From Verrucomicrobiales bacterium (lineage in GTDB: Bacteria > Verrucomicrobiota > Verrucomicrobiia > Verrucomicrobiales > DEV007), in contig JARGPH010000039.1 of the NCBI GenBank assembly GCA_029213065.1, positions 1,717-48,863 of the forward strand: 47,147 nt of DNA. The letters are read 5' to 3'. The notes under the pieces were generated by a model that saw only the letters and a list, made by a program, of their open reading frames with translations, was not told the origin of the DNA and searched no databases. The position numbers and the translations under genes were made by a program. How positions within the stretch are numbered: position 1 is the first letter of the stretch; each line of letters begins with the position of its first letter. Below, one piece after another: positions 3,223 to 32,762 of the stretch.

Positions 3223-5260
3223 TTTTCCCCCACTCGAATCAGATAGGAACGAAAGTGATGTGATCGTTGATGCATTGCTCAGCGAAGTCGCCGAAAATGA
3301 GAATGGCGATGACCTTGCTTTTCTAGAGGCAATGGAGGCAGCAATTAATGAGGCTGATGTGGTTCCGATGCCTTCGCCAGCCGAAAAAATTTATCGGAGA
3401 ATTTTATGGTCATCAGGTGTTGCGGCAACATTGATCCTGGGAGCCGGGGTCTGGTTCGCCGGAATTCAAACCAATACAATTAACCAGCCAATCTCTGCCC
3501 AAATTGTGGCGTCACCTCCCTCAACGGACAATATTGAGGCAGTCCTCAAGAATACCCACCAGAATCAGCTATCAACGACTCCCACTACAATTAACGGGGC
3601 AGGTAGCACCATTGACACCATTAAATCGTCGGCCTTTTCAAATTTCAGCGCCCATTCTTTGAGCGACTCATCCGTGACTGACGTTCAAGGCATGAGCTCA
3701 AATCCTTCACTCTCCATGGTCGGCTTCGGACAAAGTCTCAGCGAAGACTACAGCCACACTATCGACAAAGTCACCCGGCGCCCGATCCCGCAGCAACCCG
3801 GAGATCGATCACACATCTCTATCCAATTGCATGAAACCGTCACGCAATCGCAAAACAACGCCCTGATCGACAATCCCTGGGCGTCGCCCCTCGCGGAGCC
3901 ACTCTCGACCTTCTCCACCGACGTTGACACTGCCTCATGGACGAATCTGCGTGCCATGATTCGCGACGGCGCCACCCTCGAATCGATTCCGAATGATGCC
4001 GTTCGGATCGAGGAGATGATCAACTACTTTGACTGGAACTACCCGCAACCGAAAGGTGGAGAGCCCTTTTCGATTCAGCTGGAGGCCGCGCCCTGCCCCT
4101 GGAACGAAGAACACCAGCTCTTGCGGATCGGCCTGCAAGGCAGGGAAATTCCCCGCACCGATCGTCCCGCCGCAAACCTGGTCTTTCTCCTCGATGTTTC
4201 CGGCTCAATGAATGAACCGAACAAGCTCCCGCTTCTAAAAGAGGCCATCGCGATACTCGTCGAAGAACTCAACGCCGAAGATCAGGTCACCATCGTGGTC
4301 TACGCAGGATCAGAAGGCGTTGCTCTTACACCCACTTCGGGCGGCGATCAGAAAACGATTCTCAATGCCCTCGCGAACCTTGAGTCCGGCGGATCCACCA
4401 ACGGGGGCGCGGGCATCAAACTCGCCTACCGCCTCGCGAAGGAGCAGTTTGTCTCAAACGGAATCAATCGAGTCATACTCTGCACGGATGGAGATTTCAA
4501 TGTAGGCCTCACCGGGACCAAAGAACTCGTCAGCCTCGCTGAAAAGGAAGCGGAAAGCGGAACTTACCTCAGCGTCCTCGGATTCGGACAGGGCAACCTG
4601 AACGACGCGATGCTCGAGGAAGTGACGAATCGCGGAAACGGGAACTACTTTCACATCGACGGCATCAGAGAAGCCCGGAAAGTGTTCCTGAGCGATCTCA
4701 TGGGAACGCTCGTGACGATCGCCAAAGACGTTAAGATCCAGGTGGAATTCAATCCGGCCCGGGTCGCTCAATACCGGCTCATCGGCTACGCGAACCGGAA
4801 GCTCGCACCGGAGGACTTCGCGAACGATGAAATCGACGCAGGGGAAATAGGATCGGGCCATACGGTGACCGCGCTTTACGAGATTATTCCCGGCAAAGCG
4901 GAGCCCGAAGCCCCCGAACTCCGCTATCAGAACAAGGGCGAACCCGCCAGAGAGATAAAACTGATCCCGAGCGAAGAGCTCGCTCTTATCAAACTTCGCT
5001 ACAAGAAACCTGATGAGGACAGATCCATTCTCATGACCGAAACGATCCTTCCTCCCAATATGATCGATTCTCTCACCTCCCGTGATCAACAGTTCGCCGC
5101 AGCTGTCGCGCTCTTCGGAATGATTTTGCGGAACAACGACGACCTGAAAGACGCCACCTTGAACGATGTCCTGGCCCTCGCAGAACGATCAGCCCGTCGC
5201 GATCCCCACGGCTATCGCGCCGAATTTGTTGAACTGGTCAAAAAACTTTCCCTAAACTGA
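3215..5260 (+). CDS. Membrane-anchored YfbK-like von Willebrand factor A domain protein
   Basis: The 681-residue product starts at ATG 3215, inside the last codons of the sigma gene (8-base overlap). An acidic cytoplasmic N-terminus (1-60) precedes one membrane span (~63-84), a Ser/Thr/Asn-rich linker (~90-215), the YfbK-type N-terminal domain (~225-310, FSTDVDTASW), a VWA domain with MIDAS motif DVSGSM at 327-332 and CTDGD at 423-427, and a C-terminal DUF3520-like region. An in-frame extension upstream to 3017 exists but would lie wholly within the sigma gene. By position the N-terminal segment may bind the sigma factor and let an external ligand of the VWA domain control it; this is inference. 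The 3240-3700 stretch looks more AT-rich than its surroundings. Confidence 0.9.
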   Translation: MFNFPPLESDRNESDVIVDALLSEVAENENGDDLAFLEAMEAAINEADVVPMPSPAEKIYRRILWSSGVAATLILGAGVWFAGIQTNTINQPISAQIVASPPSTDNIEAVLKNTHQNQLSTTPTTINGAGSTIDTIKSSAFSNFSAHSLSDSSVTDVQGMSSNPSLSMVGFGQSLSEDYSHTIDKVTRRPIPQQPGDRSHISIQLHETVTQSQNNALIDNPWASPLAEPLSTFSTDVDTASWTNLRAMIRDGATLESIPNDAVRIEEMINYFDWNYPQPKGGEPFSIQLEAAPCPWNEEHQLLRIGLQGREIPRTDRPAANLVFLLDVSGSMNEPNKLPLLKEAIAILVEELNAEDQVTIVVYAGSEGVALTPTSGGDQKTILNALANLESGGSTNGGAGIKLAYRLAKEQFVSNGINRVILCTDGDFNVGLTGTKELVSLAEKEAESGTYLSVLGFGQGNLNDAMLEEVTNRGNGNYFHIDGIREARKVFLSDLMGTLVTIAKDVKIQVEFNPARVAQYRLIGYANRKLAPEDFANDEIDAGEIGSGHTVTALYEIIPGKAEPEAPELRYQNKGEPAREIKLIPSEELALIKLRYKKPDEDRSILMTETILPPNMIDSLTSRDQQFAAAVALFGMILRNNDDLKDATLNDVLALAERSARRDPHGYRAEFVELVKKLSLN

Positions 5261-7025: not shown

Positions 7026-8285
7026 CTACCCGTTGTAGCGCTCTACGAGCAGTGAAGCGTTGTGCCCACCGAACCCGAAGGAATTTGTCAGGGCACGATC
7101 CACTTTCATTTCACGCGCCGCATTGGGAACGTAATCGAGATCGCACTCAGGATCAGGATTGTCGAGATTGATCGTAGGAGCCACGATGCCCTCGTTGATC
7201 GACTTCACACAAGCCGCAAGCTCAACCCCGCCGGCAGCACCGAGAAGGTGCCCTGTCATCGATTTCGTCGAGCTTACGGTGAGTCCATTTTTGGCGTAGT
7301 CGCCGAAGACAGATTTGATCGCTTTCGTTTCGCCGACATCGCCCAAACCGGTAGAAGTTCCGTGAGCATTGACGTAATCCACCTGCTCAGGATTCAACTT
7401 CGCGTGCCTCAGAGCCATCTCCATACAGCGGCGCGCGCCGTCACCGTCCTTATGAGGAGAGGTAAGGTGATAAGCGTCAGAAGAGATCCCGTATCCGGTG
7501 AGCTCTGCGTAAATTTGGGCTCCACGCGCCTTTGCGTGCTCAAGCTCCTCAATCACACAGACGCCGGCGCCCTCTCCCATGACAAAACCATCACGGTCGG
7601 TATCAAACGGACGTGAAGCACGCTCGGGATCGTCGTTTCGCATACTAAGCGCCTTCATGTTGCCGAATCCGGCAAGACCCATCGGGCAAATCGTCGATTC
7701 GGAACCGCCTGCGACAAAGGCATCAGCATCACCGAATTTGATCATTCTCCACGCTTCACCAATGCTGTGAGTGGCAGTCGCACAGGCCGTTACGATACAC
7801 ATGTTCGGGCCGCGAAGGTCGAACTCGATCGAGACCATGCCGCTGGCGATATTCGCGATCATCATCGGAATCGTGAACGGAGAGACACGTGAGGGGGATT
7901 TCTCCAAGAGGTTCACGTGCTGTTCCTCAAGGGTTCCGAGACCGCCGATACCGCTCCCGACCATGCATCCAAAGCGATCTTTATCCACTTTGTCGAAATC
8001 GATCCCTGAATCCTGAATCGCCATCACCGATGCGGCCATCCCAAGTTGGGCGAAACGGTCAGCGCGACGGGCGTCCTTATACTCTTTGAAGAAAGGTTTG
8101 GCATCAAAATCCTTCACCATCCCCGCTATCTGGCAGTCATACTGCGCTAACTCAGGTTTGTTGATATTGGTGATACCACTCTTTCCAGCGACAAGATTTG
8201 CCCAGAAGTCCTCCACATTGTTTCCAACCGGAGAGACAACACCCATTCCTGTAATGACGACACGACGTTCCATTTCTGATACCAT
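7026..8285 (-). CDS. fabF: Beta-ketoacyl-ACP synthase II
   Basis: Condensing enzyme that elongates acyl-ACP with malonyl-ACP in type II fatty acid synthesis. The 419-residue thiolase-fold protein shows the full catalytic triad: C168 (in TACATATHSIGEA), H308 (NAHGTSTGLGD) and H346 (SMTGHLLGAAGG), with the glycine-rich end NSFGFGGHNASL. ATG 8285 gives MVSEMERRVVITG; the inner ATG at 8273 (MERRVVITGMG) matches the usual family start and is equally likely. It is the last gene of a long minus-strand cluster. Unusually, no acyl carrier protein gene adjoins it here. Confidence 0.96.
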   Translation of the reverse strand: MVSEMERRVVITGMGVVSPVGNNVEDFWANLVAGKSGITNINKPELAQYDCQIAGMVKDFDAKPFFKEYKDARRADRFAQLGMAASVMAIQDSGIDFDKVDKDRFGCMVGSGIGGLGTLEEQHVNLLEKSPSRVSPFTIPMMIANIASGMVSIEFDLRGPNMCIVTACATATHSIGEAWRMIKFGDADAFVAGGSESTICPMGLAGFGNMKALSMRNDDPERASRPFDTDRDGFVMGEGAGVCVIEELEHAKARGAQIYAELTGYGISSDAYHLTSPHKDGDGARRCMEMALRHAKLNPEQVDYVNAHGTSTGLGDVGETKAIKSVFGDYAKNGLTVSSTKSMTGHLLGAAGGVELAACVKSINEGIVAPTINLDNPDPECDLDYVPNAAREMKVDRALTNSFGFGGHNASLLVERYNG

Positions 8286-8336
8286 TTTGAGTGCCTAAAC
8301 TCTACTGGCATGAGATTCAATGCAAGACGATTTCGC

Positions 8337-8576
8337 CTATATCTCAATGATCCGCTCCCTTTCGTTCATCGCTCCGCAACGGGGGCATTCCGCCAAATCC
8401 CGCTCAGAAAGATCCTCGAAGACATGATCGCAGATTCCACAGATCACAAAATGCTTCCGGCGCCTGTTCTCACGGCCTTTCCGAAAGATCTCAGCCGCGA
8501 GCCAGGCAAAGAAAAGGGCGCAGAGAATCACCACTAAATACACGGCAATCATGCCATCTAAGGTTACGTGAAACAT
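8337..8576 (-). CDS. Small membrane protein with C-terminal zinc ribbon
   Basis: A 79-residue protein with one N-terminal membrane span (~10-28, MIAVYLVVILCALFFAWLAA), a basic stretch (RKGRENRRRKH) and a zinc-ribbon-like four-cysteine set (CGIC ... CPRC) before the closing MNERERIIEI. The basic patch next to the span suggests the ribbon faces the cytoplasm. It lies 51 bases before fabF and 75 after the TonB-like gene, on the same strand. No function can be assigned. It could belong to either the fabF or the ExbBD group. Confidence 0.65.
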   Translation of the reverse strand: MFHVTLDGMIAVYLVVILCALFFAWLAAEIFRKGRENRRRKHFVICGICDHVFEDLSERDLAECPRCGAMNERERIIEI

Positions 8577-8651
8577 CGGAATATAAAAGCTTCAGCCCCT
8601 GCTGCCCGGGCCCCTTGGTTTAAACCACTCTCCAACGGAGCTCAGGAAAAA

Positions 8652-9374
8652 TCAACCATCGACAAAAATCTCCATCGAACCGGTTTCAGGCTCACTCCCG
8701 GGATTAAACCGCAAAGTGGACTCAACGAGCGCCCTGAGCGCCTCTTCTTCCTCGACTTCCAACTCGGATTCGATACTTGCGATCTTCACATTCCCTTCCG
8801 GAGAGACCTCCACCTTGAATTGAAGGCTGGGAAGCGCCTCAGCCATCTCAAAGTAGTCTTTCATGATCGACCACGGAGCAATACCCCGCTCCCTCAGCGT
8901 TTCACTCAACCGCACCGTGAGCCTTCCGGAAACCAGCCTGCCGCTTGCAGGCCCATCGCCTTCTGAATGGCTCAGCGGCGCTATCATTCCGGGAACCGAC
9001 CAATGGTAGCGCAAAGGCTCCAGAGAAATCTCAGCTTCCTGAAAGGCCGGAGTAAAACGAACAGGATTATCCTTCAATCGGACCCGGACATCAGCGCTCA
9101 TTGACGCAGGCTTAAGATAGATCGTCCGGTCGCTGACTCGCTGAAGAATCGTTCTCACCGAGGGATTTGAGGTGTCGAGAATCCCGATTTTCTCGGGATC
9201 GGACTCCTTCCGCACCGGGCTCGGGTAGACCACTTGAAAGAGATAAAACCCCGATCCATGGATAAGGATTGAAACGACGAAAAAAGCGGTGACGTAAAAC
9301 CAGAGCCCCCGTTCCCGGGCCCAGTAAAAGGTCCGTCCCCGTTCGTCTTCCTCTTCCCCTGAATCGATCGCCAT
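8652..9374 (-). CDS. TonB/TolA-like energy transducer
   Basis: A 240-residue protein with an acidic N-terminus, one membrane span (~24-50) and a periplasmic remainder. The span carries S35-x-x-x-H39 (VSILIHGSG), matching the S-x-x-x-H motif that TonB needs to couple to ExbB/ExbD. The last ~75 residues (FKVEVSPEGNVKIASIE, then ALVESTLRFNPG) have the pattern of a TonB-type C-terminal domain. No proline-rich spacer is present, so its reach would differ from classical TonB. It starts 14 bases after the exbD stop. With ExbB and ExbD it should form a proton-motive-force-driven inner membrane complex; the outer membrane target is unknown. Confidence 0.75.
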   Translation of the reverse strand: MAIDSGEEEDERGRTFYWARERGLWFYVTAFFVVSILIHGSGFYLFQVVYPSPVRKESDPEKIGILDTSNPSVRTILQRVSDRTIYLKPASMSADVRVRLKDNPVRFTPAFQEAEISLEPLRYHWSVPGMIAPLSHSEGDGPASGRLVSGRLTVRLSETLRERGIAPWSIMKDYFEMAEALPSLQFKVEVSPEGNVKIASIESELEVEEEEALRALVESTLRFNPGSEPETGSMEIFVDG

Positions 9375-9388
9375 TTCAGAGTGCGGGG

Positions 9389-9793
9389 TTAAGGAATCTC
9401 CTGCTGTGTCGCGAAGGATAGCTCGAACCCCTGCTTGATTACCAGACTTGCGATTTTCATCACCGAACCATAATCAACTTCCTCGTCTCCCAGAAGGATC
9501 ACCTCATGCGAACGCTTTTTCGACTCATCGAGGGCAGCCGGCAATTCCTCAAGAGTGATCCACTCATCATTGAAATAGAACTTCGAGGACTCACCGGGAA
9601 TCACCGTAATAATGTGCGCGTCCTCCGCGGACGGCAGTGACGCGGTCGAGGTGGGAAGATTGATCTCAAATCCGGATTTTAAGACAAGGTTGGAGCCAAA
9701 CAGAAAAAAGATGATCAGCATCAGGATCACATCAATCAGCGGGGCTGTATAAAGAGCCCCCCCGCGATCACTCAATGTGGATTCCAGTTTCAA
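9389..9793 (-). CDS. exbD: ExbD/TolR-family biopolymer transport protein
   Basis: A 134-residue protein with one membrane span (~17-38, APLIDVILMLIIFFLFGSN) carrying D21, the counterpart of the essential proton-carrying aspartate, and a periplasmic ExbD/TolR domain. The TTG start at 9793 is forced: an in-frame TGA lies four codons upstream and the next ATG falls inside the span. It lies 19 bases after exbB and 14 before the TonB-like gene, the classical exbB-exbD-tonB order. It should act as the stator partner of ExbB in harnessing the proton gradient. Confidence 0.9.
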   Translation of the reverse strand: MKLESTLSDRGGALYTAPLIDVILMLIIFFLFGSNLVLKSGFEINLPTSTASLPSAEDAHIITVIPGESSKFYFNDEWITLEELPAALDESKKRSHEVILLGDEEVDYGSVMKIASLVIKQGFELSFATQQEIP

Positions 9794-9812
9794 ATCTCGG
9801 ATTCAATCGAAG

Positions 9813-10508
9813 TTATTGATCAAGAGCCTCTTTCGAGGGTCCGTCATCGGCAGCTGTGCCGGGAGGCGAATCAGGACGCATCGAGATGATGTCGTCAGTG
9901 TGTGTCCGGAGATCACAAATCGTATTTACGATCTCAATTCCGGCACTCTCCATATCGTGCATTAAATTCTTGGCGTATGCCTTGAGGTGAGAATAGAAAA
10001 CGAAGGATGGAATCGCCACCATCAGGCCCGCTGCTGACGTAATCAACGCCTCGTAGACGCCCTGGGAGATCTCGGCCACCCGCACAAACCCACCGACGGC
10101 ACTGATCTGCACGAAGGTATCGACAAGACCGAGAACGGATCCCAGCAAACCGATCAACGGCGCGATGTAAGCCACCGTGAGAAGAACCGAAAGGTGTTTT
10201 TCAAGCTTCGGCACTTCAAGTTGGCCACTCTCCTGCACGATCTCCTTCAGCTCGCTTCGCGGCATCGAGTAGCGGCGAATCGCGGACTGAATCACCCGGG
10301 CCGCAGGTCCGGGCGTCGAGACACATTCCGAGAGAGCCTCTGAGTAGGCCTTGTTTTTAATGAGATTTCGCAATCCAAACAGCAAATCACCGACATCAAT
10401 TCGAGCTCGATGAAAATAGAAAAGTCTTTCCAGAAAAATGGCGATTGCGATCACCGAACAGCCTAAAAGGAGCCACATGAGGGGCCCGCCTTTTGTAATA
10501 AGATCCAT
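9813..10508 (-). CDS. exbB: ExbB/TolQ/MotA-family proton channel protein
   Basis: A 231-residue protein with three membrane spans (~5-25; ~106-135, TVAYIAPLIGLLGSVLGLVDTF; ~148-172, YEALITSAAGLMVAIPSFVFY), the standard ExbB/TolQ layout. The GLLGSVLGLVDTF motif is diagnostic of the family. The ATG at 10508 follows a long T run on the coding strand. It is the first of the exbB-exbD-tonB trio, and the gene just upstream encodes a roadblock protein of a GTPase cassette. Among ExbB, TolQ and AglR the exact subfamily cannot be decided by eye. Confidence 0.92.
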   Translation of the reverse strand: MDLITKGGPLMWLLLGCSVIAIAIFLERLFYFHRARIDVGDLLFGLRNLIKNKAYSEALSECVSTPGPAARVIQSAIRRYSMPRSELKEIVQESGQLEVPKLEKHLSVLLTVAYIAPLIGLLGSVLGLVDTFVQISAVGGFVRVAEISQGVYEALITSAAGLMVAIPSFVFYSHLKAYAKNLMHDMESAGIEIVNTICDLRTHTDDIISMRPDSPPGTAADDGPSKEALDQ

Positions 10509-10601
10509 AAAAAAACAAGACGGAGCTATCTTCCCCGAAGCTCAATCATAAGCACAATCCAGTCAACGGGCAAAGACATTCCCATTCATCAGAACGGTAG
10601 A

Positions 10602-12032
<1,431 letters not shown>

Positions 12033-12098
12033 TAACTCTCAAATTTCCCATTGGTGGAATTCGTATCCACCACAGCCGCCCGATCACACATTCCGTTT

Positions 12099-12749
12099 CT
12101 AATTCTCAGAAGAAACCGGCACGCCCGATTTCGCCCTGCTGCCACCTATACTACCCTCTTTTCTAACGGCTTGGGAATGAAATCCTTTAATCACTTGTTT
12201 AGTGAGGTCATCGAGAGTCGCAAACACCTGGTATCCGGAAGTGGCACAGGCAAGAAATGATGCGCGTCTCACCCCGAACATCTCATCGAAAAGATCGGGA
12301 CAGGTCGCATCAGCACGATCTCGTTTGTTGTATTGAAACGAAATCGGAAGACGGTCAGGATCGATACGGTTTTCACGGAGTGCCTCGCGGCAATTGTTGA
12401 AGGCGCTCAAGTTGGCTCCCAGTCTCGAAGGCGTCGAATCGGCCACGAAAACGACACCGTCAGCCCCCGCGAGAACGTTCTTGCGGGTCTCCGAAAGGAC
12501 ATCCTGTCCGGGAACGGTGTAGAGCTGAAACCGGGTTTGGTACCCCTCAATTTCCGTGGTGTGAATGGGCAGGAAATCAAAACTGATCGTTCGATTCTGA
12601 TCCGTCGCCACTGAGATCAAATCGCCGCGCAAATAGGAATCGAGGCGACGGTGGATGTAATGGAGATTCGTCGTCTTGCCACCTTCAGGAGGTCCACAAT
12701 AGACCAGTTTAAACTGAACTTCCTGAGTGTCATGTCGGACGAGTGCCAT
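12099..12749 (-). CDS. MglA-like Ras/Arf-type small GTPase
   Basis: A 216-residue cytoplasmic GTPase. Motifs seen are P-loop G19-PPEGGKTTN, switch-I threonine T54 (NRTISFDF), switch-II TVPGQ (78-82, with the Pro-Gly-Gln of MglA in place of DxxGQ) and base-recognition NKRD (141-144). Phe58 and Asp-Phe in FDFLP also fit the MglA group. MglA sets cell polarity and switches motility machinery in Myxococcus, acting with the roadblock protein MglB. Here the gene begins 6 bases after one roadblock gene and is followed by another, with an ExbB/ExbD/TonB-like trio beyond. GTPase identity is firm; the output is unknown. Confidence 0.85.
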   Translation of the reverse strand: MALVRHDTQEVQFKLVYCGPPEGGKTTNLHYIHRRLDSYLRGDLISVATDQNRTISFDFLPIHTTEIEGYQTRFQLYTVPGQDVLSETRKNVLAGADGVVFVADSTPSRLGANLSAFNNCREALRENRIDPDRLPISFQYNKRDRADATCPDLFDEMFGVRRASFLACATSGYQVFATLDDLTKQVIKGFHSQAVRKEGSIGGSRAKSGVPVSSEN

Positions 12750-12755
12750 GGTTTC

Positions 12756-14834
12756 CTATTTTTCGAGTTTCTCCAAATTCCGGGAAATGAGGATCAATTT
12801 CTCACGGGTCCCGGGTTCAAATTCTGCAACTTCATGATGAACAGTGAGGCAACATTCACCGTCCAGAAAAATACTGACGATCCCCTTGTCGGTATGCAGA
12901 GTGAAGGATTGAGCATCGGGAAGCCCGGTCAGTTTGGCGAGATTTCTAATCGTCTGCACCATTTCCTTCGCTTCATCCCCAATGCGGCTTTCTTCATTCC
13001 GCGACGCCTGAACGAGGCGTCCCGGTGTCGCGAGGGCACAACTGGAAATACCCGGCAAAGCAACCACTCGTCTCGCCACAGATCGCAATGTAAAAGGATC
13101 GTTAGTTGAGAAAATAGCTCTCAGTTCGAGATCCCGAATCTCATTGGAATGAGAAAGGCCGGGAAGACCGACATTCGTGGCAACCGGAGCGGGCGCGGGC
13201 GCTGCGATTGTTTCCATTTCCGGCTCTGGCTCCGGCTCAACCTTCGCAACCGGTTGAGGCGTCGCAACCGGCTCAGGAACCGACTGTTCCTCCGGCTCGA
13301 CGGACACTGCCGGCTGAGGCTGCGACTGCGGCAGCGCCGAGGGGAAGGAGCTCCCCGAAAAGGCTGATCCCTGCGCCCTCGCCGCAGACTCATCAGCAGG
13401 AGCGGGTGTGGACGCCGGTGCCTCCACAGGCGGCTCACTTTTCGTCTCGGAAAATCCTTTTGGAATCGACTGCGTAGCGGCCTCGAATCCAAAAGAAGGT
13501 CTATTCGGTTCCTCCTCTTTGGAAACTTCGACGGTTTCTTCCGACGTTTCCACTTCAGGAGCGGAAGCAGCTGGGTCAGCCGACTGGAAAACCGATGGAA
13601 GCTCATGCTCCTCATTAACCGGAGGAAGAAAGAGCCCGTAATCATCATCGTCATCATCAGGACTCCCGAAAGCATTGCCACCGGACGATGATGGAGATCC
13701 TGAGTTCGGAGAATCGGGAGCTTCAGGTGCTTTAGAACTTCCCGGAATTAAATTCCCGATACTTTCAAAACCCTTGCTGATCGCATCGGAGCCGGAGTCA
13801 CCATCGGGATCGGCTTTGGCATCAAACATCGTGCCCCAGGTGCCATCCGGGCTGTCCCCGGGCGTTGGCTTCGCCTTCGCTGAATCGACCGGCTTAGCTG
13901 ACGGAGAAGGAAATGGAATTTCCGCATCCTCTTCAGCCTGGGTCGAGAAAAGTGTCGAATATCCCTCGTCGCTTTCAAAAGGGTTCCCGGAAAACTGAGA
14001 CGAGGGCGCCGGTTTCTCCTCGTGAGGTGGTTTCTCTTTGTCAGAGGGAGCCTTTTGCTCAAAAGGATTTGAGGCTGCCGGCGCGGAGAATCCGTTGGGA
14101 ACGGCATCCTGCGCGGACGGCTGCGTTCCCGATTTCTTGACTTCCGCATCACCTGAATTGAATGGCGAGGGCGAGGGGTTTTTCATCTGAGGCTTCTCAA
14201 AACCTCCCAAACCTTGTGGTGTTTTTCCCTCGGCACTGTTGGAGGCAGCTCGAGGCTGGGAGTGGGGTTCGCTCATATCATTCAAGGGCTGCTGTTTGTT
14301 CTCAGGTGCCTTTTCGTCCTCTTCAGGAGACCAGAAAGGATTCGACTTCTCCGAACCGGTCGAAGCGGAAGACGCGTTCTGCGCCGGTTTGGGAGAAGAT
14401 GCGGCCATTCCCGGCGGCTTCGAAAAGGCAGCTCCGGGTGTAAACGGTGAATTGGATCCGGGAGTCGGTTCGGGAGGGCTGCTCAATTTCGCAGGAAGCG
14501 TCACCGTGGATTCGTTCAGCGGGGTGATTTCCGCAGCGAAGAGCTCAGGGCACACCTCATAAATAGTCGAAAGAAGGACGTCGTTTGAACCATCTGCCGA
14601 TAGAGGGATATCAACCTCCTTAGTCATCGGAATGCCCGTCTGAGCCGCGATAGCCGGCGGAATGAACGGCAACAACTCGCTCACCTGAAACGTCTGGTGC
14701 GGGATCGACTTTCTTCCAGCTCCTTCCGGCGCAGAAAACGGCGACTGATGCCTCGAATCACCACCTGCCTGAAAGGGCGACCCTTCTGACTCCCCGTCTT
14801 CCGGGTTGAAGATATTTCGAAATGAGAATGACAT
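12756..14834 (-). CDS. Large disordered protein with C-terminal roadblock-like domain
   Basis: A 692-residue protein. The first ~120 residues hold a short folded-looking segment (VSELLPFIPPAIAAQTGIP, then IYEVCPELFAAEITPLNES). Residues ~120-560 are rich in Pro, Ser, Glu and Asn with repeated 'NPF' and 'SPF' tripeptides, and are probably disordered. The last ~125 residues (LRSVARRVVALPGISSCALA, MVQTIRNLAKLTGL, IVSIFLDGECCLTVHHE) have the alternating pattern of a roadblock/LC7 domain. It is the first gene of the cluster and ends 6 bases before the GTPase start, so it is a probable partner. The roadblock call for this gene is less certain than for 10602-12032. Confidence 0.65.
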   Translation of the reverse strand: MSFSFRNIFNPEDGESEGSPFQAGGDSRHQSPFSAPEGAGRKSIPHQTFQVSELLPFIPPAIAAQTGIPMTKEVDIPLSADGSNDVLLSTIYEVCPELFAAEITPLNESTVTLPAKLSSPPEPTPGSNSPFTPGAAFSKPPGMAASSPKPAQNASSASTGSEKSNPFWSPEEDEKAPENKQQPLNDMSEPHSQPRAASNSAEGKTPQGLGGFEKPQMKNPSPSPFNSGDAEVKKSGTQPSAQDAVPNGFSAPAASNPFEQKAPSDKEKPPHEEKPAPSSQFSGNPFESDEGYSTLFSTQAEEDAEIPFPSPSAKPVDSAKAKPTPGDSPDGTWGTMFDAKADPDGDSGSDAISKGFESIGNLIPGSSKAPEAPDSPNSGSPSSSGGNAFGSPDDDDDDYGLFLPPVNEEHELPSVFQSADPAASAPEVETSEETVEVSKEEEPNRPSFGFEAATQSIPKGFSETKSEPPVEAPASTPAPADESAARAQGSAFSGSSFPSALPQSQPQPAVSVEPEEQSVPEPVATPQPVAKVEPEPEPEMETIAAPAPAPVATNVGLPGLSHSNEIRDLELRAIFSTNDPFTLRSVARRVVALPGISSCALATPGRLVQASRNEESRIGDEAKEMVQTIRNLAKLTGLPDAQSFTLHTDKGIVSIFLDGECCLTVHHEVAEFEPGTREKLILISRNLEKLEK

Positions 14835-15042
14835 AAAGCCAGTTAAAGGAATGAGGGAGCTACCACTGAACTCATACTCAAAAGAGCGATTTTAATAGAA
14901 TGACCCTAAAAGTATGAATATTTTAGTAAATTGAGATTAAAGTGGTAAAATCAATTTATCAAGATGTTTTTACTATTAAGATAAATTAATTAAAATTCCA
15001 CTCGTGACTATTCAGTAGAATTTACCAGCGGTACACGCCGGC
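14835..15042 (-). promoter_or_regulatory. AT-rich promoter region of the roadblock-GTPase-ExbBD cluster
   Basis: A markedly AT-rich block (about 14880-15000) sits just upstream of the first gene of the cluster. On the minus strand a weak sigma-70-like pair is TTGATA (14962-14957), 15 bases, TTTAAT (14941-14936); other pairings are possible. No gene is present between 14835 and 15075. Confidence 0.35.
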
Positions 15043-15065
15043 CCCTTTTCACCTTCTGAAAAGGG
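15043..15065 (-). terminator. Hairpin just past the CPBP protease gene
   Basis: CCCTTTTCA and TGAAAAGGG (15043-15051 and 15057-15065) form a 9 bp perfect stem with a 5-base loop, starting 10 bases after the stop. No T tract follows on the minus strand, so termination efficiency is uncertain. Confidence 0.45.
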
Positions 15066-15075
15066 AACGTTTCGT

Positions 15076-16455
15076 TCAGAGAGTCGCCCAAAGGGCAAAA
15101 ACGAGCACCCCATTGTTGATCGCGTGGGCCACCATCGGAGCGATCAGAGAATCCCTCCACTCGCGAATCAGAGCAAAGCCCACCCCCATCGCGGCCAGCG
15201 CCGGAACCGCATAAAAACCCTGTGGATGGAGGACCGCGAAAATCAACCCGCCGATCAAAGCGGAGAGTAAAAACGCGAACCGCCCCCTCAAGTAGCGATG
15301 AAACATCCCCCGAAAGAAGGTCTCTTCGAAAAAAGGAGCGAAAACAGCGGCCAGAAAAAGACAGCCCAATTTCACAAGAATACTGCCCTCAAAGATCCAG
15401 CCGACAATGGGATGAGGCTCCGGCCCCGGCGCAACGGCTCCCTGGGGATCATCTCCATACAGTTTGGAAAGAAACATCAGGACGGCCGTGATTGTTATTC
15501 CGATTGAAGCGATCGAGAGCACACCGAAATAACCGACAATCCCCGCCCCGACCTCACGCAAAAATCCTTCTCCCCGATGCCACCCGATATTTTGTCGAAA
15601 CACTTTCCAGCTGATCTTTCGAAAAATAGGCCATGCGAGCGGCACGATCACAGCACCCACGAAAGCGACCATTGCGAGCGCGGGATGAAAAAGCGCCGCC
15701 CCGAGCGAACCGAAAGACATTACCCCCAGATAGAGAGCGAAGCACTCCAAATAAACACCGTCCTGTGCGCGCTCGATCTTCAGTGCATTGACACTCATGC
15801 CGCGATTCATTCGATTCGCGTGAATGATGACGAGAACGCCCCCCGCCAGCAGTCCTGCTAAAGCGCAGAGAAAACAAACTGAGCCGACCATGAATATGAC
15901 AATCGAGCGGGTTCGAATCGATCCTGCCGAGGGTGACTCCTCACCACCTTCACCCGGGGCGAGACTGGCAAACCATTCACCGATCACCTCCTCAAGTTGA
16001 GCTCTCTCCCCGTCATTCAGCCCCGATTCGATGGCTTTCTCAACCAGCTTCGCCGCGATCGGCATCCTCTCAGCCGGCAGCGTCTTCACCGTCTCGGCGG
16101 CACGGTCGCTATCCGGCAAAACGAACTTCTCAATCAATGCAAGTCCGGCGACAGCTCCGGGACTTTCCGCCAGTTCGGAAAGATCTTCGAGCATCGGCTC
16201 TATTTTTCCCGGCTCAAATTTCTGAGAGGCGATGACCACCTGGGCCTGCATTTTCAGAATCGCAAGCTCAGCAGGATCCACCGCAACCACCGTTTCAGCA
16301 GGCGCTGCGTCCCCACCTCCCGGAAGCTTCTCCAAAAGTAATCCGAGAGGAACAATCGAAAACAGAATCAGCGGCCACGACCACCAGGCAGCTTTCCGCG
16401 GCACCTTCGGCGGAGTCGCTAAAGGGCCGTCCTCAGGCTCGCCGGAAGCATCCAT
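15076..16455 (-). CDS. CPBP-family intramembrane metalloprotease
   Basis: A ~459-residue polytopic membrane protein ending in an Abi/CPBP domain: FFEETFFRGMFHRYL (the EExxxR motif), IFAVLHPQGF and MVAHAINNGV supply the glutamate, arginine and histidine residues of this family, which includes CAAX prenyl endopeptidases. About seven or eight membrane spans. Between the first span (~30-48) and the second lies a soluble helical region (~60-175). The TTG at 16473 would add six residues but falls within a hairpin arm; ATG 16455 is preferred. Substrate unknown. It lies 78 bases after the PQQ-like propeller gene on the same strand. Confidence 0.88.
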   Translation of the reverse strand: MDASGEPEDGPLATPPKVPRKAAWWSWPLILFSIVPLGLLLEKLPGGGDAAPAETVVAVDPAELAILKMQAQVVIASQKFEPGKIEPMLEDLSELAESPGAVAGLALIEKFVLPDSDRAAETVKTLPAERMPIAAKLVEKAIESGLNDGERAQLEEVIGEWFASLAPGEGGEESPSAGSIRTRSIVIFMVGSVCFLCALAGLLAGGVLVIIHANRMNRGMSVNALKIERAQDGVYLECFALYLGVMSFGSLGAALFHPALAMVAFVGAVIVPLAWPIFRKISWKVFRQNIGWHRGEGFLREVGAGIVGYFGVLSIASIGITITAVLMFLSKLYGDDPQGAVAPGPEPHPIVGWIFEGSILVKLGCLFLAAVFAPFFEETFFRGMFHRYLRGRFAFLLSALIGGLIFAVLHPQGFYAVPALAAMGVGFALIREWRDSLIAPMVAHAINNGVLVFALWATL

Positions 16456-16470
16456 TAACTTTGACAGACC

Positions 16471-16503
16471 CAACAGGGTTGAATCAGTGACCTAACCCTG
16501 TTG
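16471..16503 (-). promoter_or_regulatory. 10 bp perfect inverted repeat before the CPBP gene
   Basis: CAACAGGGTT (16471-16480) and AACCCTGTTG (16494-16503) enclose 13 bases. It lies between the propeller gene stop (16534) and the CPBP ATG (16455). No T tract follows on either strand, so it may be a regulatory or mRNA-processing hairpin, an operator, or a weak terminator. Confidence 0.45.
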
Positions 16504-16533
16504 AATGTGCTGAAATCGGGAATCCAAGCGGAT

Positions 16534-17976
16534 CTAGTTACCGCTCACGTCGTAAGCGACGATATACTCCTGGTCCCGCAGGTAGAGCGTTCCGCCGATC
16601 ACGAGAGGATGCGTCCAGACCTTGCCTTTCGTGTTTCGGTTCGGACTCTGAGGGTCCAGTTTGAACTGCCCCTTCTGGTTGAAGCCTTTCGGGGAAACCT
16701 CAACGAGGAGAACCGTTCCATCATCCTCGTTCAAAGTGTATAAATGACCGTCAGCTACGTGAACGGAGCCTTTCGAAGTGAACTGGCCTTTTTCATTCCA
16801 AACCATCTCACCGGAATCCCACTCCTGACAAATCAACCCGGCACCATCTGAAAAACCGTAAAGATAATCGCCGACCTTTACGACTCCCCCGTGGTGATTC
16901 TTCATCTCTTTGTTCTCCCAGACATCTTCCGTTGACCAGTCCGAGTTCACTTTCACCAGCTTGCAACCGACACCATAACCGGAGGTTATGTAAATCTCAT
17001 CGCCATCGACAATCGGGGTTGGAATCACCGCCGTCTTACCTCCCCAGGGTGAGCTCCAGAGAAGCTCGCCATCCTCGGCTGAAACGCCAACCAGTTCCTT
17101 TTCGAAAAGTCTCACGTACTGCTTTTTCCCGTGAATCTCCGTTGAGATGATGGTGGCATACTCAGCCTTGCCGGGCTTCAAGTCCTCAGCTTTCCAGATC
17201 GTCTTTCCTGTTTCCTTGTCGAGAGCGACCATACCGGCTTCATTACCACCGGGGGCGAGAATAAGATGATCTCCATCGACCAGCGGAGAAGCGGAAAATC
17301 CCCATCCTCCTGCCTTACCGTCAAAGTCGTCAACGAGATGCTTCGACCAGACTTCACTTCCGGTATCAGCGCTCAAACAGGCTATGGTTCCTTTCGGCCC
17401 CAACGCATATATATGCCCATCTGAAAAGGTAGGTGTGCTTCTCGGACCGTTCCCCCAGCCCGTGTTGTAACCTTGTTGATCGTCCTCTCCGATCTTCGTT
17501 GACCACACTTTTTTACCCGTCGCGGTATCCACTGCCGTTACCGTGACGTCCTCCCCCTGAGTTCCCATGGTGTAGAGAACGCCACCGACAACACTGAATC
17601 CCGAGTATCCCATACCGGCATCCTCGAACACCCAGAGCTTGTCCGGGCCACCCTCCGGCCATTCTTTCAGCAAACCGGTGTCAGGGGAAATGTCATCACC
17701 TTTCGGTCCGCGGAAGGCAGGCCAGGAAGCGCCTCCGGAAGCAGCAGACTTGGCTTCGAGAGAAGAGAGATACTCCTGATCATCCAAACTCAATGAAATG
17801 ACATCGACCTGTCCAACTCCTCCGTTCGGAAGTTTCAAATGAGCGACCCCGCTTTCGACTTTGATAAGCTCCGCTTCGATCTTTTTTCCCGAGCCGGCCT
17901 GAGTCCAGGTTCTTGCTACGGCCATTTGACTAAGCCCGGAAACGGCGATTAAAGCGATCAAGAAGTGTCTCATCAT
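16534..17976 (-). CDS. Secreted SHD1 plus PQQ-like beta-propeller protein
   Basis: A 480-residue exported protein. ATG 17976 gives a clean signal peptide (MMRHFLIALIAVSGLSQMAVA); a longer frame to 18036 would bury it. Residues ~22-75 (WTQAGSGKKIEAELIKVESG, then QVDVISLSLDDQEYL) resemble an SHD1 domain, common in planctomycetes and verrucomicrobia. The rest is a repeated-blade PQQ-like propeller (TAVDTATGKKVWS, CLSADTGSEVWSK, VALDKETGKTIWK). No heme motif or clear PQQ-dehydrogenase catalytic residues were seen, so it may be a BamB-like or scaffold propeller rather than an enzyme. Confidence 0.85.
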   Translation of the reverse strand: MMRHFLIALIAVSGLSQMAVARTWTQAGSGKKIEAELIKVESGVAHLKLPNGGVGQVDVISLSLDDQEYLSSLEAKSAASGGASWPAFRGPKGDDISPDTGLLKEWPEGGPDKLWVFEDAGMGYSGFSVVGGVLYTMGTQGEDVTVTAVDTATGKKVWSTKIGEDDQQGYNTGWGNGPRSTPTFSDGHIYALGPKGTIACLSADTGSEVWSKHLVDDFDGKAGGWGFSASPLVDGDHLILAPGGNEAGMVALDKETGKTIWKAEDLKPGKAEYATIISTEIHGKKQYVRLFEKELVGVSAEDGELLWSSPWGGKTAVIPTPIVDGDEIYITSGYGVGCKLVKVNSDWSTEDVWENKEMKNHHGGVVKVGDYLYGFSDGAGLICQEWDSGEMVWNEKGQFTSKGSVHVADGHLYTLNEDDGTVLLVEVSPKGFNQKGQFKLDPQSPNRNTKGKVWTHPLVIGGTLYLRDQEYIVAYDVSGN

Positions 17977-18064
17977 GGCGCAAAGTCTGATCTCATTTTC
18001 ATAAAAAGGCAAGTCACGTAAAGCATGGAGGCGCATTTACGAAAAACGGTCAGCCCGGTACAGC

Positions 18065-23356: not shown

Positions 23357-25441
23357 CTACCGTGCCCGCATGAGAACGACCCGGAACCCTACGTCGTAGC
23401 GGTCTTTCGCGGACGGGCCGGCTCCCATACGGTTACCGACTTTAAGATCGAACTGGGAAGACCGGTTCCAGGCTCCGCCACGCATTACCTTGCGGTCTGT
23501 GCCAACCCAACTCTCGTTGGGAGTGGCGCCTTCGTTACGCATCCGGTTCACTATCGTCTGGGAATACCAGTCTCCGACCCACTCCCAGACATTTCCGCGA
23601 ACGTCGTAGAGGCCGAATTCGTTGGGAGCAAGCGATCCGACCGGCGAGGTTGATTTCTGACGCTCGAAGAGACTTGAGACCGCGCCATCCAGTTTTTGAA
23701 CGCCCACGAAATGACTCCACTCCTGATCGGTAGGGAGTCGATAACGATAACCCTCGGGAAGGGTTCCACGGGCACTCTCTTCGCCGGTCAACGCTTCACA
23801 GAATTTCATCGCATCATACCAGGTTACACTGTCGACGGGATGATTCGGCGATTTGAAATAGCTGGGATTCGCACCCGTCGTTCTCTCGAACAGCTCCTGA
23901 GTCACCTCGTGCGCCCCAACCCAGCCATCGAGACGACCGAACCAAACCATCTCCTGTCCGAGACTGTTCGTAAAATTCCGCGTCATCACCGGAGCCGCAT
24001 CGAACTTCAAAGTCGCGGAAAAATCGAGAGAGCCTCCGGGCTCGACGACACCGGAAACTCTCGTGCTGCGGTGCTGCGGTTTCGTCAGCTCATAGGTGTA
24101 ACTTCCCGGAGGAACCACCGAAAGGGCCAGTGGAGTGCGCCCGATCGGAACACCGCCCGAAATCACAGCGGCCCCGGAGGGATTACTCTCAATAAATACT
24201 TTTCCGTAATCGAATTCAAAGTTCACCACATTCGATCCGGCACCGGAGTCGACGTAGGCCGTGGAATTCACTTCGTTCAAGCGATCGAACCGCGAGGAAA
24301 ATTGATACTCCCCTTCCGGCATCTCGAGCGAGAAAGGCGTCACTTCACTCCCGTTCCCCAATCGCCTGTCGTCTTGATAGACAACCGCCCCGGGCGGATC
24401 GCTTACAAACTTCACGAGGGCCCGCTCCCAGGCAAATTCGAGGTCCTGGGTCACTCCGTCACGAACCTCCACGGTCCGGCGAATCGGATCCCAATCGCCA
24501 TGTCGCAGCTCGAGGGTGTGCTTGCCAACCGGAAGATCGGCGAGACTCATCGGAGTCGTTCCCGCCTTGCGGGCATTCCCGTTACCACTTTGAATCCAGA
24601 GCTCAGCGCCGTTGGGATCGCTCGTAATATTGAGCCCCCCTTTCGCGAAAACCGCAGAAACCGACGTGTTCCGGTTGTTTTCAATGCGGACCATCTTGGA
24701 ATACTCCGGCCATCCTTCGACCGCCATGAGAATTTGATACTCTCCCGGATCGAGTTTCTCAATCCGCGCCGGAGTTTTGCCAATTTCGATGAGCTCCTTC
24801 GGCTCGTCCCCCACCTTTTTAATCAATTTAAAATCAGCTCCGACAGGTTCGCTAACCACGTCAATTCCGCCTGAGCTTTTCTTCAACTGAATCCCCGCGA
24901 GTTCAATCACCTTCTCGTTCTCAACCGTGACCGATCGTTCCACCGTTTCGTAACCCTCTTTCTTGATCCGAATCGTGTGGGTTCCCAGCGGGATTCCCGC
25001 AAAACGGGCCGGGGAGGTTTGCTCATCAATCCCCTTCAGCAAAATGACAGCTCCAGTCGGCACCGTGCTTACGGCGATAACGCCCTTGGCTTCATCGAGG
25101 CGTCGATCAATCAGGGGAAGCGATGCTATTGCAACAGGGTTCTCCGGATCGATTTCGATCACATCCTGAAAAAAGCGGCGGGCCTCAAGCCACTCCCCCT
25201 TGGCGACGGCTTCACGGGCTTCTGTAATCAACGCGGTCACCTTGGCGGGGCTGGCTCCCGACGGCTCTTCAACCCTTTCCACGACAGGATTCGCATTCCG
25301 CTTCCCAAAATAAAGACCACTGCCAACACCCACCGCAAGAGAGAAGAGCACAAGAACGACCCAGCCCCACCGGGGGACCTTCGATCCCGGTTTGACGCGT
25401 TGCCTCGGCGGCAAGTCGATTTTGGTTGTATGGCGCTCCAT
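23357..25441 (-). CDS. Membrane protein with PEGA repeats and C-terminal FGE/SUMF1-like domain
   Basis: A 694-residue protein: basic cytoplasmic N-terminus, one span (~26-46), a TPR-like helical pair (~65-108, EAVAKGEWLEARRFFQDVIEIDPENP), about five PEGA-type beta repeats (~118-475, each with patterns like TVPTGAVILLKG, SDPNGAELWIQS, SNPSGAAVISGG followed by P-x-G-x-Y/H-T) and an FGE-sulfatase domain (~485-694: GAHEVTQELFER, YRLPTDQEWSHF, VRGNVWEWVGDW, VMRGGAWN, GFRVV). PEGA repeats are seen in surface and cell-wall-facing proteins. The FGE-like fold often lacks the cysteines for sulfatase activation and may bind ligands. GTG 25444 is an alternative start. Confidence 0.85.
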   Translation of the reverse strand: MERHTTKIDLPPRQRVKPGSKVPRWGWVVLVLFSLAVGVGSGLYFGKRNANPVVERVEEPSGASPAKVTALITEAREAVAKGEWLEARRFFQDVIEIDPENPVAIASLPLIDRRLDEAKGVIAVSTVPTGAVILLKGIDEQTSPARFAGIPLGTHTIRIKKEGYETVERSVTVENEKVIELAGIQLKKSSGGIDVVSEPVGADFKLIKKVGDEPKELIEIGKTPARIEKLDPGEYQILMAVEGWPEYSKMVRIENNRNTSVSAVFAKGGLNITSDPNGAELWIQSGNGNARKAGTTPMSLADLPVGKHTLELRHGDWDPIRRTVEVRDGVTQDLEFAWERALVKFVSDPPGAVVYQDDRRLGNGSEVTPFSLEMPEGEYQFSSRFDRLNEVNSTAYVDSGAGSNVVNFEFDYGKVFIESNPSGAAVISGGVPIGRTPLALSVVPPGSYTYELTKPQHRSTRVSGVVEPGGSLDFSATLKFDAAPVMTRNFTNSLGQEMVWFGRLDGWVGAHEVTQELFERTTGANPSYFKSPNHPVDSVTWYDAMKFCEALTGEESARGTLPEGYRYRLPTDQEWSHFVGVQKLDGAVSSLFERQKSTSPVGSLAPNEFGLYDVRGNVWEWVGDWYSQTIVNRMRNEGATPNESWVGTDRKVMRGGAWNRSSQFDLKVGNRMGAGPSAKDRYDVGFRVVLMRAR

Positions 25442-25532
25442 CACTGGTTCAAAGACGGACGACTTGATCGCAGTCGCTATTCATATACACGATTTTGCAT
25501 CATTCCCCCACCCTGTATTATCGCCAAAGCAG

Positions 25533-32754: not shown

Positions 32755-32762
32755 AGGGCGAT

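What the first reader, a model, noticed from the sequence alone, without database searches (positions are those of the whole stretch)
8652..14834. Candidate GTPase-gated proton-driven envelope motor: MglA-like GTPase and two roadblock proteins in one run with ExbB-ExbD-TonB
Six consecutive minus-strand genes encode a roadblock protein, an MglA-like GTPase (GPPEGGKTTN, TVPGQ, NKRD), a second roadblock protein, ExbB, ExbD (D21) and a TonB-like protein with the S35-x-x-x-H39 motif. Gaps are 6, 66, 93, 19 and 14 bases. In Myxococcus, MglA and the roadblock protein MglB control the Agl gliding motor built from TolQ/TolR-type subunits, which are encoded at other loci there. A compact locus pairing switch and motor is, as far as I know, undescribed. 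It could drive motility, polarity or regulated outer-membrane energy coupling.
Basis: partly seen in the sequence, partly recalled or inferred. Interest (0 to 1): 0.78.

Follow-up and report, generated by a model that had tools for sequence, protein, structure and literature searches.

The report
MglA switch genes beside a TonB motor
In this bacterium's lineage, genes for an MglA-type polarity switch sit right beside genes for a proton-driven envelope motor; the pairing looks old rather than accidental, but the two sets look like separate units, so direct control of the motor by the switch is unproven.

Summary
All six genes are present where stated, with the stated gaps. The GTPase is a true MglA (profile E 3e-72 to M. 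xanthus MglA) with the Group 1 signature TVPGQ plus R53-T54. The downstream roadblock protein is MglB-like. The upstream one seems to end in a divergent roadblock domain (weak model). MotA_ExbB and ExbD domains are solid, TonB is weaker.

The neighbourhood is unlikely to be chance: it recurs in the genus and in three other families. Against a gated motor: (i) a promoter-like motif before exbB is conserved in linked and unlinked genomes (13 of 19; pattern chosen after seeing the alignment); (ii) rbB and exbB are not neighbours in 6 of 18 judgeable genus genomes; (iii) no intact mglA was found in three lineages while ExbB stays at 76-100% identity; (iv) outside the home family ExbB lies near mglA in 5 of 48 families, a PilB/GspE-type ATPase in 13 of 48.

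Best reading: an MglA/MglB polarity cassette with an older link to type IV pilus or type II secretion machinery, beside a separate ExbB-ExbD-TonB unit. Unexpected: the roadblock pair outlives its GTPase, still beside exbB.

The parts
12756..14834 (-). rbA: 692 aa; conserved N-terminal domain (about aa 1-110), long Pro/Ala/acidic linker, C-terminal roadblock-like domain (about aa 560-692)
   Evidence: ORF; no Pfam hit; alpha-beta-beta-alpha-beta-beta-beta model of low confidence and Foldseek hits to MglB/HBXIP/LAMTOR/MglC; similar architecture in other families read by eye
12099..12749 (-). mglA: 216 aa MglA-family small GTPase, Group 1 signature (R53-T54, T78-V-P-G-Q82, N141-K-R-D)
10602..12032 (-). 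rbB: 476 aa; N-terminal MglB-like roadblock domain plus about 300-aa acidic/Pro-rich tail
   Evidence: Pfam Robl_LC7 3.6e-7; profile to M. xanthus MglB 6.7e-29
10545..10573 (-). promoter-like site before exbB: TTGCCC-17-TATGAT here; extended -10 form TTKG...TRTGNTA in relatives
   Evidence: consensus and conservation only, not measured; by itself one of 7 promoter-like sites in 8200-15200 against 2.9 (sd 1.6) in shuffles
9813..10508 (-). exbB: MotA/TolQ/ExbB proton-channel subunit, 231 aa
   Evidence: Pfam 2.3e-27; 76-100% identical in 17 of 18 genus genomes
9389..9793 (-). exbD: ExbD/TolR subunit, 134 aa, TTG start, D21
   Evidence: Pfam 1.4e-18
8652..9374 (-). tonB-like: 240 aa, one TM with S35-x-x-x-H39, C-terminal TonB-like domain
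   Evidence: TonB C-terminal domains are the top Foldseek hits, E 0.02, weak; no Pfam hit; the equivalent protein of f116 (L138) reaches TonB_C at 1.7e-4, just below cut-off
7026..8285 (-). fabF: beta-ketoacyl-ACP synthase, conserved downstream neighbour of exbBD-tonB
   Evidence: Pfam 1.9e-65; synteny
15076..16473 (-). Rce1-like CAAX protease family membrane protein, conserved upstream neighbour of the cassette in the genus
   Evidence: Pfam 2.8e-17; synteny

Best explanation
Two neighbouring modules. Module 1 (rbA-mglA-rbB) is a Group 1 MglA switch with an MglB-like GAP (rbB) and a long scaffold protein ending in a second roadblock domain (rbA, in the role of MglC or RomR rather than a second GAP). 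By analogy with Myxococcus it would switch between GTP and GDP states to set where in the cell an envelope machine works. Its commoner, and probably older, neighbour is a PilB/GspE-type ATPase of a type IV pilus or type II secretion system. Module 2 (exbB-exbD-tonB, then fabF) is the lineage's standing proton-driven energy coupler, read from its own promoter in the 93-base gap. The two have long been neighbours in several families of this class, but the motor does not depend on the GTPase. Shown here: identities, conservation of the promoter-like motif, loss of the rbB-exbB junction in some genomes, GTPase losses, recurrent neighbours. Inferred: promoter activity, polarity function, pilus or secretion target, scaffold role of rbA.
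For: MglA profile E 3e-72, MglB profile 6.7e-29. exbB promoter motif in 13 of 19 upstream regions: 6 of 7 that the script labelled unlinked, 7 of 12 labelled linked; mean 0.03 in shuffles (the pattern was written after seeing the alignment, so this is optimistic). In G009 and G014 both sides of the break are visible: the cassette keeps its upstream neighbours but other genes follow rbB, and exbB-exbD-tonB-fabF has other genes before it. exbB orthologue in 17 of 18 genus genomes, 76-100% identical, whether or not mglA is there. No intact mglA found in G015, G010, G013. T2SSE within 9 kb of mglA in 13 of 48 families outside f1 (12 counting the same strand only) against ExbB in 5 of 48; T2SSE-rbA-mglA-rbB in one run in f10, f18, f71, f92, f98, f113 (Pfam T2SSE about 1e-140 on four examples).
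Against: exbB lies directly downstream, same strand, in four families (f1, f4, f18, f116), more than a neutral neighbour should do. In the home genus no T2SSE or T2SSF gene lies in the 25 f1 loci held, and the PilT model rings over its cut-off in 27 of 28 relatives with or without mglA, the PilB model in 28 of 28 but never over its cut-off, so the pilus link is not shown there. A promoter does not exclude read-through from rbB. The roadblocks stay beside exbB in all three lineages without an intact mglA.
Confidence: 0.6

Rival explanations
1. Functional coupling without co-transcription: MglA or the roadblock proteins position or tune the ExbB-ExbD-TonB complex in the envelope, and that is why the neighbourhood persists.
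For: rbB directly before exbB in 12 of 18 genus genomes where it can be judged, and mglA with exbB downstream in f4 (L092), f18 (L067) and f116 (L138, L147, where mglA is followed directly by exbB). The roadblocks stay beside exbB in the three lineages without intact mglA (L042, L045, L048).
Against: Junction absent in 6 of those 18; ExbB 76-100% identical when unlinked or without GTPase; 43 of 48 families outside f1 show no ExbB in the flanks read; promoter-like motif before exbB.
Confidence: 0.25
2. One reading: a single operon encoding a GTPase-gated proton-driven motor for gliding or uptake, an Agl-like machine in one locus.
For: Compact same-strand run with five gaps of at most 93 bases; the Myxococcus parallel MglA with AglRQS (passages of PMC3169522).
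Against: Promoter-like motif in the 93-base gap; one ExbD and a TonB-like protein instead of the two ExbD/TolR-type subunits of AglRQS; GTPase dispensable. Glt proteins were not looked for.
Confidence: 0.07
3. The roadblock pair has a GTPase-independent job, so rbA-rbB, not MglA, is the durable part of the locus, perhaps as an envelope scaffold.
For: Three lineages keep both roadblock genes without an intact mglA. Between L024 (intact mglA) and L042 (broken mglA) omega is 0.17 for the rbA roadblock domain and 0.19 for the rbB domain, against 0.58 for the mglA piece compared.
Against: One close pair; 124, 79 and 126 codons compared; whole rbA and rbB give higher omega (0.43, 0.28), and the loss may be recent. 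The rbA domain is strongly diverged in G015 (score 41 against about 220 in most). Orphan MglBs attributed to mglA loss are described in conservons (PMC4316618).
Confidence: 0.3
4. Pure chance juxtaposition in one genome.
For: Promoter-like sites before both halves; separable halves.
Against: Same order in many diverged genomes and in other families. Rough estimate by hand: even with 20 ExbB-like candidates per 5 Mb (the most), about 0.3 of 48 families would show exbB within 3 kb downstream on the same strand; three do, besides the home family. Shared ancestry makes these fewer than three independent cases.
Confidence: 0.03

Closest known systems
MglA/MglB polarity module of Myxococcus xanthus (with MglC, RomR)
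   Same: GTPase with R53-T54, T78VPGQ and NKxD; MglB-type roadblock next to it; a second roadblock protein (compare MglC, a paralogue said to have lost MglA binding, PMC7949163, passages)
   Different: The second roadblock is at the end of a 692-aa protein with a long linker; rbB has a long acidic tail; exbB-exbD-tonB adjoin; no role tested
AglRQS/Glt gliding machinery of Myxococcus
   Same: TolQ/ExbB-type proton channel and an MglA-family GTPase in the same system
   Different: AglRQS has one TolQ-type and two TolR-type subunits at its own locus (PMC3169522, passages); here one ExbD and a TonB-like protein; Glt proteins not looked for
ExbB-ExbD-TonB energy transducer
   Same: Pfam MotA_ExbB and ExbD; TM S-x-x-x-H; TonB-like C-terminal domain
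   Different: NCBIfam scores TolQ/TolR above ExbB/ExbD, all below cut-off; the TonB assignment rests on motif and weak fold match; lies in a conserved run with fabF (and an IMPDH-family gene in f10 and f116)
Group 1 to 5 MglA systems of Wuichet and Sogaard-Andersen 2014 (PMC4316618; sections 13, 15, 18 and passages read)
   Same: Fits Group 1 by G2/G3 motifs; roadblock coupling within four genes; orphan roadblocks after GTPase loss have a precedent in conservons
   Different: That survey lists Verrucomicrobia under Group 5, not under Group 1

Membership tests
MglA family, Group 1 | G3 motif TVPGQ instead of DxxGQ | tested here: met
   T78VPGQ82 in the window; of 100 mglA loci scanned 82 give YTVPGQ, 5 FTVPGQ, 1 CTVPGQ, 4 YAVPGQ, 3 other strings (at least one a wrong landing of the pattern), 5 no match
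MglA family, Group 1 | Intrinsic arginine finger next to the G2 threonine | tested here: met
   R53-T54 invariant in 16 of 16 rows of A1; criterion from PMC4316618 section 15
MglA family | Sequence homology to characterised MglA | tested here: met
   E 3.3e-72 to M. xanthus MglA, 3.3e-68 to the gliding protein mglA of 3t12
MglA family | Roadblock (MglB) gene within four genes | tested here: met
   rbB is the next gene; criterion from PMC4316618
MglA family | GTP hydrolysis stimulated by its MglB | not testable with these tools
   Needs biochemistry
MglB / Roadblock-LC7 (rbB) | Robl_LC7 domain and MglB homology | tested here: met
   Pfam 3.6e-7 over cut-off; 6.7e-29 to MglB; the NCBIfam MglB equivalog is matched below its cut-off (48.7 of 200 bits)
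Roadblock-LC7 (rbA C-terminal domain) | Roadblock fold | tested here: inconclusive
   No Pfam hit; hhalign to rbB not significant; model pLDDT 47 with fitting topology, listed Foldseek hits roadblock-type, best E 1.9e-3
ExbB-ExbD-TonB | MotA_ExbB and ExbD domains | tested here: met
ExbB-ExbD-TonB | ExbB/ExbD rather than TolQ/TolR by curated models | tested here: inconclusive
   All below cut-off; TolQ and TolR score higher
ExbB-ExbD-TonB | TonB with TM S-x-x-x-H and TonB C-terminal domain | tested here: inconclusive
   Motif present; no Pfam or meaningful PDB sequence match; TonB CTDs top the Foldseek list at E 0.02
AglRQS gliding motor | One TolQ-type with two TolR-type subunits | tested here: not met
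   One ExbD only at the locus
AglRQS/Glt gliding machinery | Glt core proteins in the genome | not tested
   No search made
Single MglA-ExbBD operon | One transcript over all six genes | tested here: inconclusive
   Conserved promoter-like motif before exbB argues against; RNA needed

The most novel reading that the evidence does not exclude
In this class of Verrucomicrobiota an MglA switch, its two roadblock proteins and an ExbB-ExbD-TonB motor form one functional envelope module, in which the roadblock proteins physically place or tune the ExbB/TonB complex and remain as its partners even where the GTPase has been lost; in f18 the same run also carries a PilB-type ATPase, so one switch could serve pilus or secretion and TonB motors together.
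Probability: 0.18. Interest if true: 0.75.

Novelty: new variant of a known kind. Interest (0 to 1): 0.48.

Why it matters
It puts Group 1 MglA switches, known for polarity in Myxococcus and Thermus, into a phylum for which the 2014 survey listed Group 5 only. It shows a recurrent neighbourhood with both PilB/GspE-type ATPases and an ExbBD-TonB motor. The repeated loss of the GTPase with both roadblock genes kept makes a direct test possible of what roadblock proteins do without their GTPase.

Tried and rejected
One-operon model: rejected as the default because a promoter-like motif in the rbB-exbB gap is conserved whether or not the cassette is there. The pattern was written after looking at the alignment of the same 19 sequences, so the shuffle comparison is optimistic. 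The window, L023, L033, L035, L047 and L048 lack the exact pattern; the window has a one-base variant read as TTGCCC-17-TATGAT. A slightly looser pattern found nothing before exbB of eight order relatives (L053-L060; their first possible start codon was used, which may not be the true one). L065, L066 and L067 were only read by eye: nothing clear in L065 and L067, a TATGTTA in L066. So it is a family-level feature.

T4P presence as a discriminator: the PilT model rings over its cut-off in 27 of 28 relatives; the PilB model matches 28 of 28, none over its cut-off; both ring in 13 of 14 control genomes at E 0.001. They cannot explain why mglA is in 19 of 28 (the G013 pseudogene included).

rbA as roadblock by sequence: failed. 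Alignment A2 contained one wrong-frame row (L067); A5 was made without it, but the comparison used A2. TonB by sequence: failed for the window protein.

Counts: the 18 genus genomes with a judgeable rbB-exbB junction are G000, G001, G003-G011, G013-G016, G544 and the named contigs L023 and L024. G002 and G012 are left out (too little DNA upstream of exbB; the tail of rbB is low-complexity), though the script had labelled both unlinked, and G017 (no exbB or mglA match). G005 is counted as linked from an rbB piece beside exbB on one contig and the rest of the cassette at the end of another. In G003 no mglA was found (53% complete); in G544 the exbB side was not looked for; in G001 and G016 the cassette ends at a contig end. 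Six mglA loci were dropped from the MglA tree as short or divergent (L100, L103, L105, L126, L127, L150). Of 86 loci, 52 reach 8 kb and 64 reach 5 kb on both sides of mglA, so neighbours can be missed. In f10 and f92 some T2SSE hits are antisense frames, but a same-strand hit is also there; in f107 only an opposite-strand hit was seen. Of the 97 class genomes with MglA 69 were read; of the 29 phylum genomes G204, G240, G244 and G273 were not.

Glt gliding proteins, RomR and TonB-dependent receptors were not searched for.
Full report
Observation. Pfam supports MotA_ExbB, ExbD and the Robl_LC7 domain of the 476-aa protein; the GTPase has only hits below cut-off, and the 692-aa and 240-aa proteins have none. 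NCBIfam equivalogs are all below cut-off, with TolQ and TolR scoring above ExbB and ExbD. With family profiles the GTPase matches solved M. xanthus MglA at 3.3e-72, and the 476-aa protein matches MglB at 6.7e-29. The 692-aa protein (rbA) has a C-terminal domain modelled with the roadblock order of helices and strands at low confidence (pLDDT 47); the 50 listed Foldseek hits are roadblock proteins or complexes that hold them, MglB first at E 1.9e-3, MglC also listed, none under 0.001. The TonB-like protein has S35-x-x-x-H39, and its model's best hits are TonB C-terminal domains, weakly (E 0.02); the equivalent protein of family f116 reaches Pfam TonB_C at 1.7e-4, just below cut-off.

Which MglA. 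The G2 arginine R53 beside T54 and the G3 motif TVPGQ are the features by which Wuichet and Sogaard-Andersen describe Group 1 (PMC4316618, section 15). Their section 13 lists Verrucomicrobia under Group 5 and not under Group 1. MglA was found in 29 of 288 sampled genomes of the phylum (E 1e-10 or better) and in 97 of 385 of the class (E 1e-30 or better). The tree of 88 MglAs broadly follows taxonomy.

Neighbourhood in the genus. The order PQQ-protein, CAAX protease, rbA, mglA, rbB, exbB, exbD, tonB, fabF (with the sigma factor gene beyond on the other strand in several) is conserved between genomes whose MglAs are 53-85% identical to the window's. Of 18 genomes in which the rbB-exbB junction can be judged, 12 have rbB directly before exbB (G000, the named contigs L023 and L024, G004-G008, G010, G011, G013, G015) and 6 do not (G001, G003, G009, G014, G016, G544). 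In G009 and G014 both sides are visible and each half keeps its own neighbours, so the break lies between rbB and exbB; in the other four only one side is visible. A tree of ExbB+ExbD+FabF places G001, G003, G009, G012 and G014 in one subclade (97%), with G016 and linked G007 in the next larger group (99%); deeper nodes of the genus are weak (28-64%), but the earliest branches (G015, and G008 with G005) are linked, so linkage is probably the older state.

exbB probably has its own promoter. Alignment of upstream regions shows TTKG, then 12-16 bases, then TRTGNTA, the latter 49-69 bases before the exbB start. The full pattern is present in 13 of 19 upstream regions (6 of 7 labelled unlinked, which include G002 and G012 that I otherwise leave undecided; 7 of 12 labelled linked); shuffled sequences give a mean of 0.03 and a maximum of 1. 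The pattern was chosen after seeing the alignment. The window carries the variant TTGCCC-17-TATGAT at 10573-10545. This is consensus and conservation, not a measured start site, and it does not exclude read-through.

The GTPase is dispensable, ExbB seems not to be. No mglA was found in G010 and G015, and G013 has it split over frames with stops. In G010 the first 18 codons after rbA resemble the start of mglA (44% identity to L024, E 0.003 against two short stretches), a probable relic. G015 is 77% complete, but its rbA and rbB ORFs abut with no gene between. The three are probably separate events: G013 is nested with intact L024, G010 is next to that pair, G015 is deep. Between L024 and G013 omega is 0.17 (rbA roadblock domain, 124 codons), 0.19 (rbB domain, 79 codons), 0.03 (exbB) and 0.58 (mglA, 126 codons of one frame); whole rbA gives 0.43 and whole rbB 0.28, their linkers evolving faster. 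In four genomes (G001, G009, G012, G014) the MglA hallmark T78 is alanine; in M. xanthus T78A is reported to complement only poorly and is described as abolishing activity (PMC3000849, passages). Of these four, G001, G009 and G014 are unlinked and G012 groups with them; unlinked G016 and G544 keep T78. ExbB is 76-100% identical in 17 of 18 genus genomes regardless.

Neighbourhood beyond the genus. I read 86 mglA loci in 49 families. Outside the home family f1 that is 85 loci in 48 families; 52 of the 86 reach 8 kb on both sides. ExbB lies within 9 kb in 8 of 85 loci and 5 of 48 families: f4 (1 of 7), f10 (3 of 5, convergent), f18 (1 of 1), f107 (1 of 1, upstream) and f116 (2 of 3). It is directly downstream on the same strand in f4, f18 and f116. 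A T2SSE-family ATPase (PilB/GspE type; Pfam about 1e-140 on four examples) lies within 9 kb in 21 of 85 loci and 13 of 48 families (20 loci and 12 families on the same strand), in six families as T2SSE-rbA-mglA-rbB. In f18 (L067) one run reads MshEN-domain protein, T2SSE, rbA, mglA, rbB, exbB, exbD, a tonB-like ORF and fabF; f10 and f116 have an IMPDH-family gene before fabF. So the cassette's commoner neighbour is a pilus or secretion ATPase, while the exbBD link is rarer. None of the 25 f1 loci held shows T2SSE or T2SSF. The PilT model rings over its cut-off in 27 of 28 near relatives, so presence of pilus genes does not decide the matter.

How it probably works. By analogy with Myxococcus, where MglA-GTP is said to stimulate both type IV pili and the gliding machine (PMC9481161, start of abstract in the listing and passages; PMC7519303, start of abstract in the listing), the MglA here would mark a cell site for an envelope machine, rbB would be its GAP, and rbA a long scaffold with a second roadblock domain. 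ExbB-ExbD-TonB is probably read from its own promoter and is kept without the GTPase. Regulated placement of the motor by the roadblocks remains possible but untested.

Literature. Full-text searches for MglA with roadblock and ExbB and for roadblock with Verrucomicrobia and ExbB found no paper; MglA with ExbD found 6, of which PMC3169522 was read in passages and describes Myxococcus AglRQS; the rest were seen as listings. A Methylacidiphilum MglA-MglB-like gene pair of unknown function has been noted (PMC4476040, passages). Most subscription papers are not in that library.

Noticed in passing
window 14505-14834 (rbA aa 1-110); L067 5645-8620; L065 9031-10953; L039 8809-11514: rbA carries a conserved N-terminal domain (LP..PP..., then IYxVCPxLF...) with no Pfam match; in class-level relatives similar stretches appear, by eye, once or twice before the roadblock domain. 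It may be a new domain.
   Followed up: partly
L025, L026, L027, L029 (G014, G012, G009, G001): MglA hallmark residue T78 is alanine in four genomes of the subclade where the cassette is detached from exbB.
   Followed up: partly
L042 8223-8912, L045 about 4510-4679, L048 5695-8300: Broken mglA, probable relic, and absence between rbA and rbB genes.
   Followed up: partly
L092 8883-12224 (G256, f4): A very divergent MglA with rbA, rbB, exbB, exbD and a further ORF in one run, in a family whose other six loci read show no exbB near mglA.
   Followed up: no
L138 1427-3942, L147 8997-11720 (f116): mglA followed directly by exbB-exbD-tonB-like with no rbB between; no MglB match in the flanks read.
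   Followed up: no
window 15076-18036: Rce1-like CAAX protease family protein and an SHD1 plus PQQ beta-propeller protein are conserved upstream neighbours of the cassette in the genus.
   Followed up: no
window 23357-25444 and 30502-32766: PEGA plus FGE-sulfatase protein, and a protein-kinase domain plus FGE-sulfatase protein.
   Followed up: no
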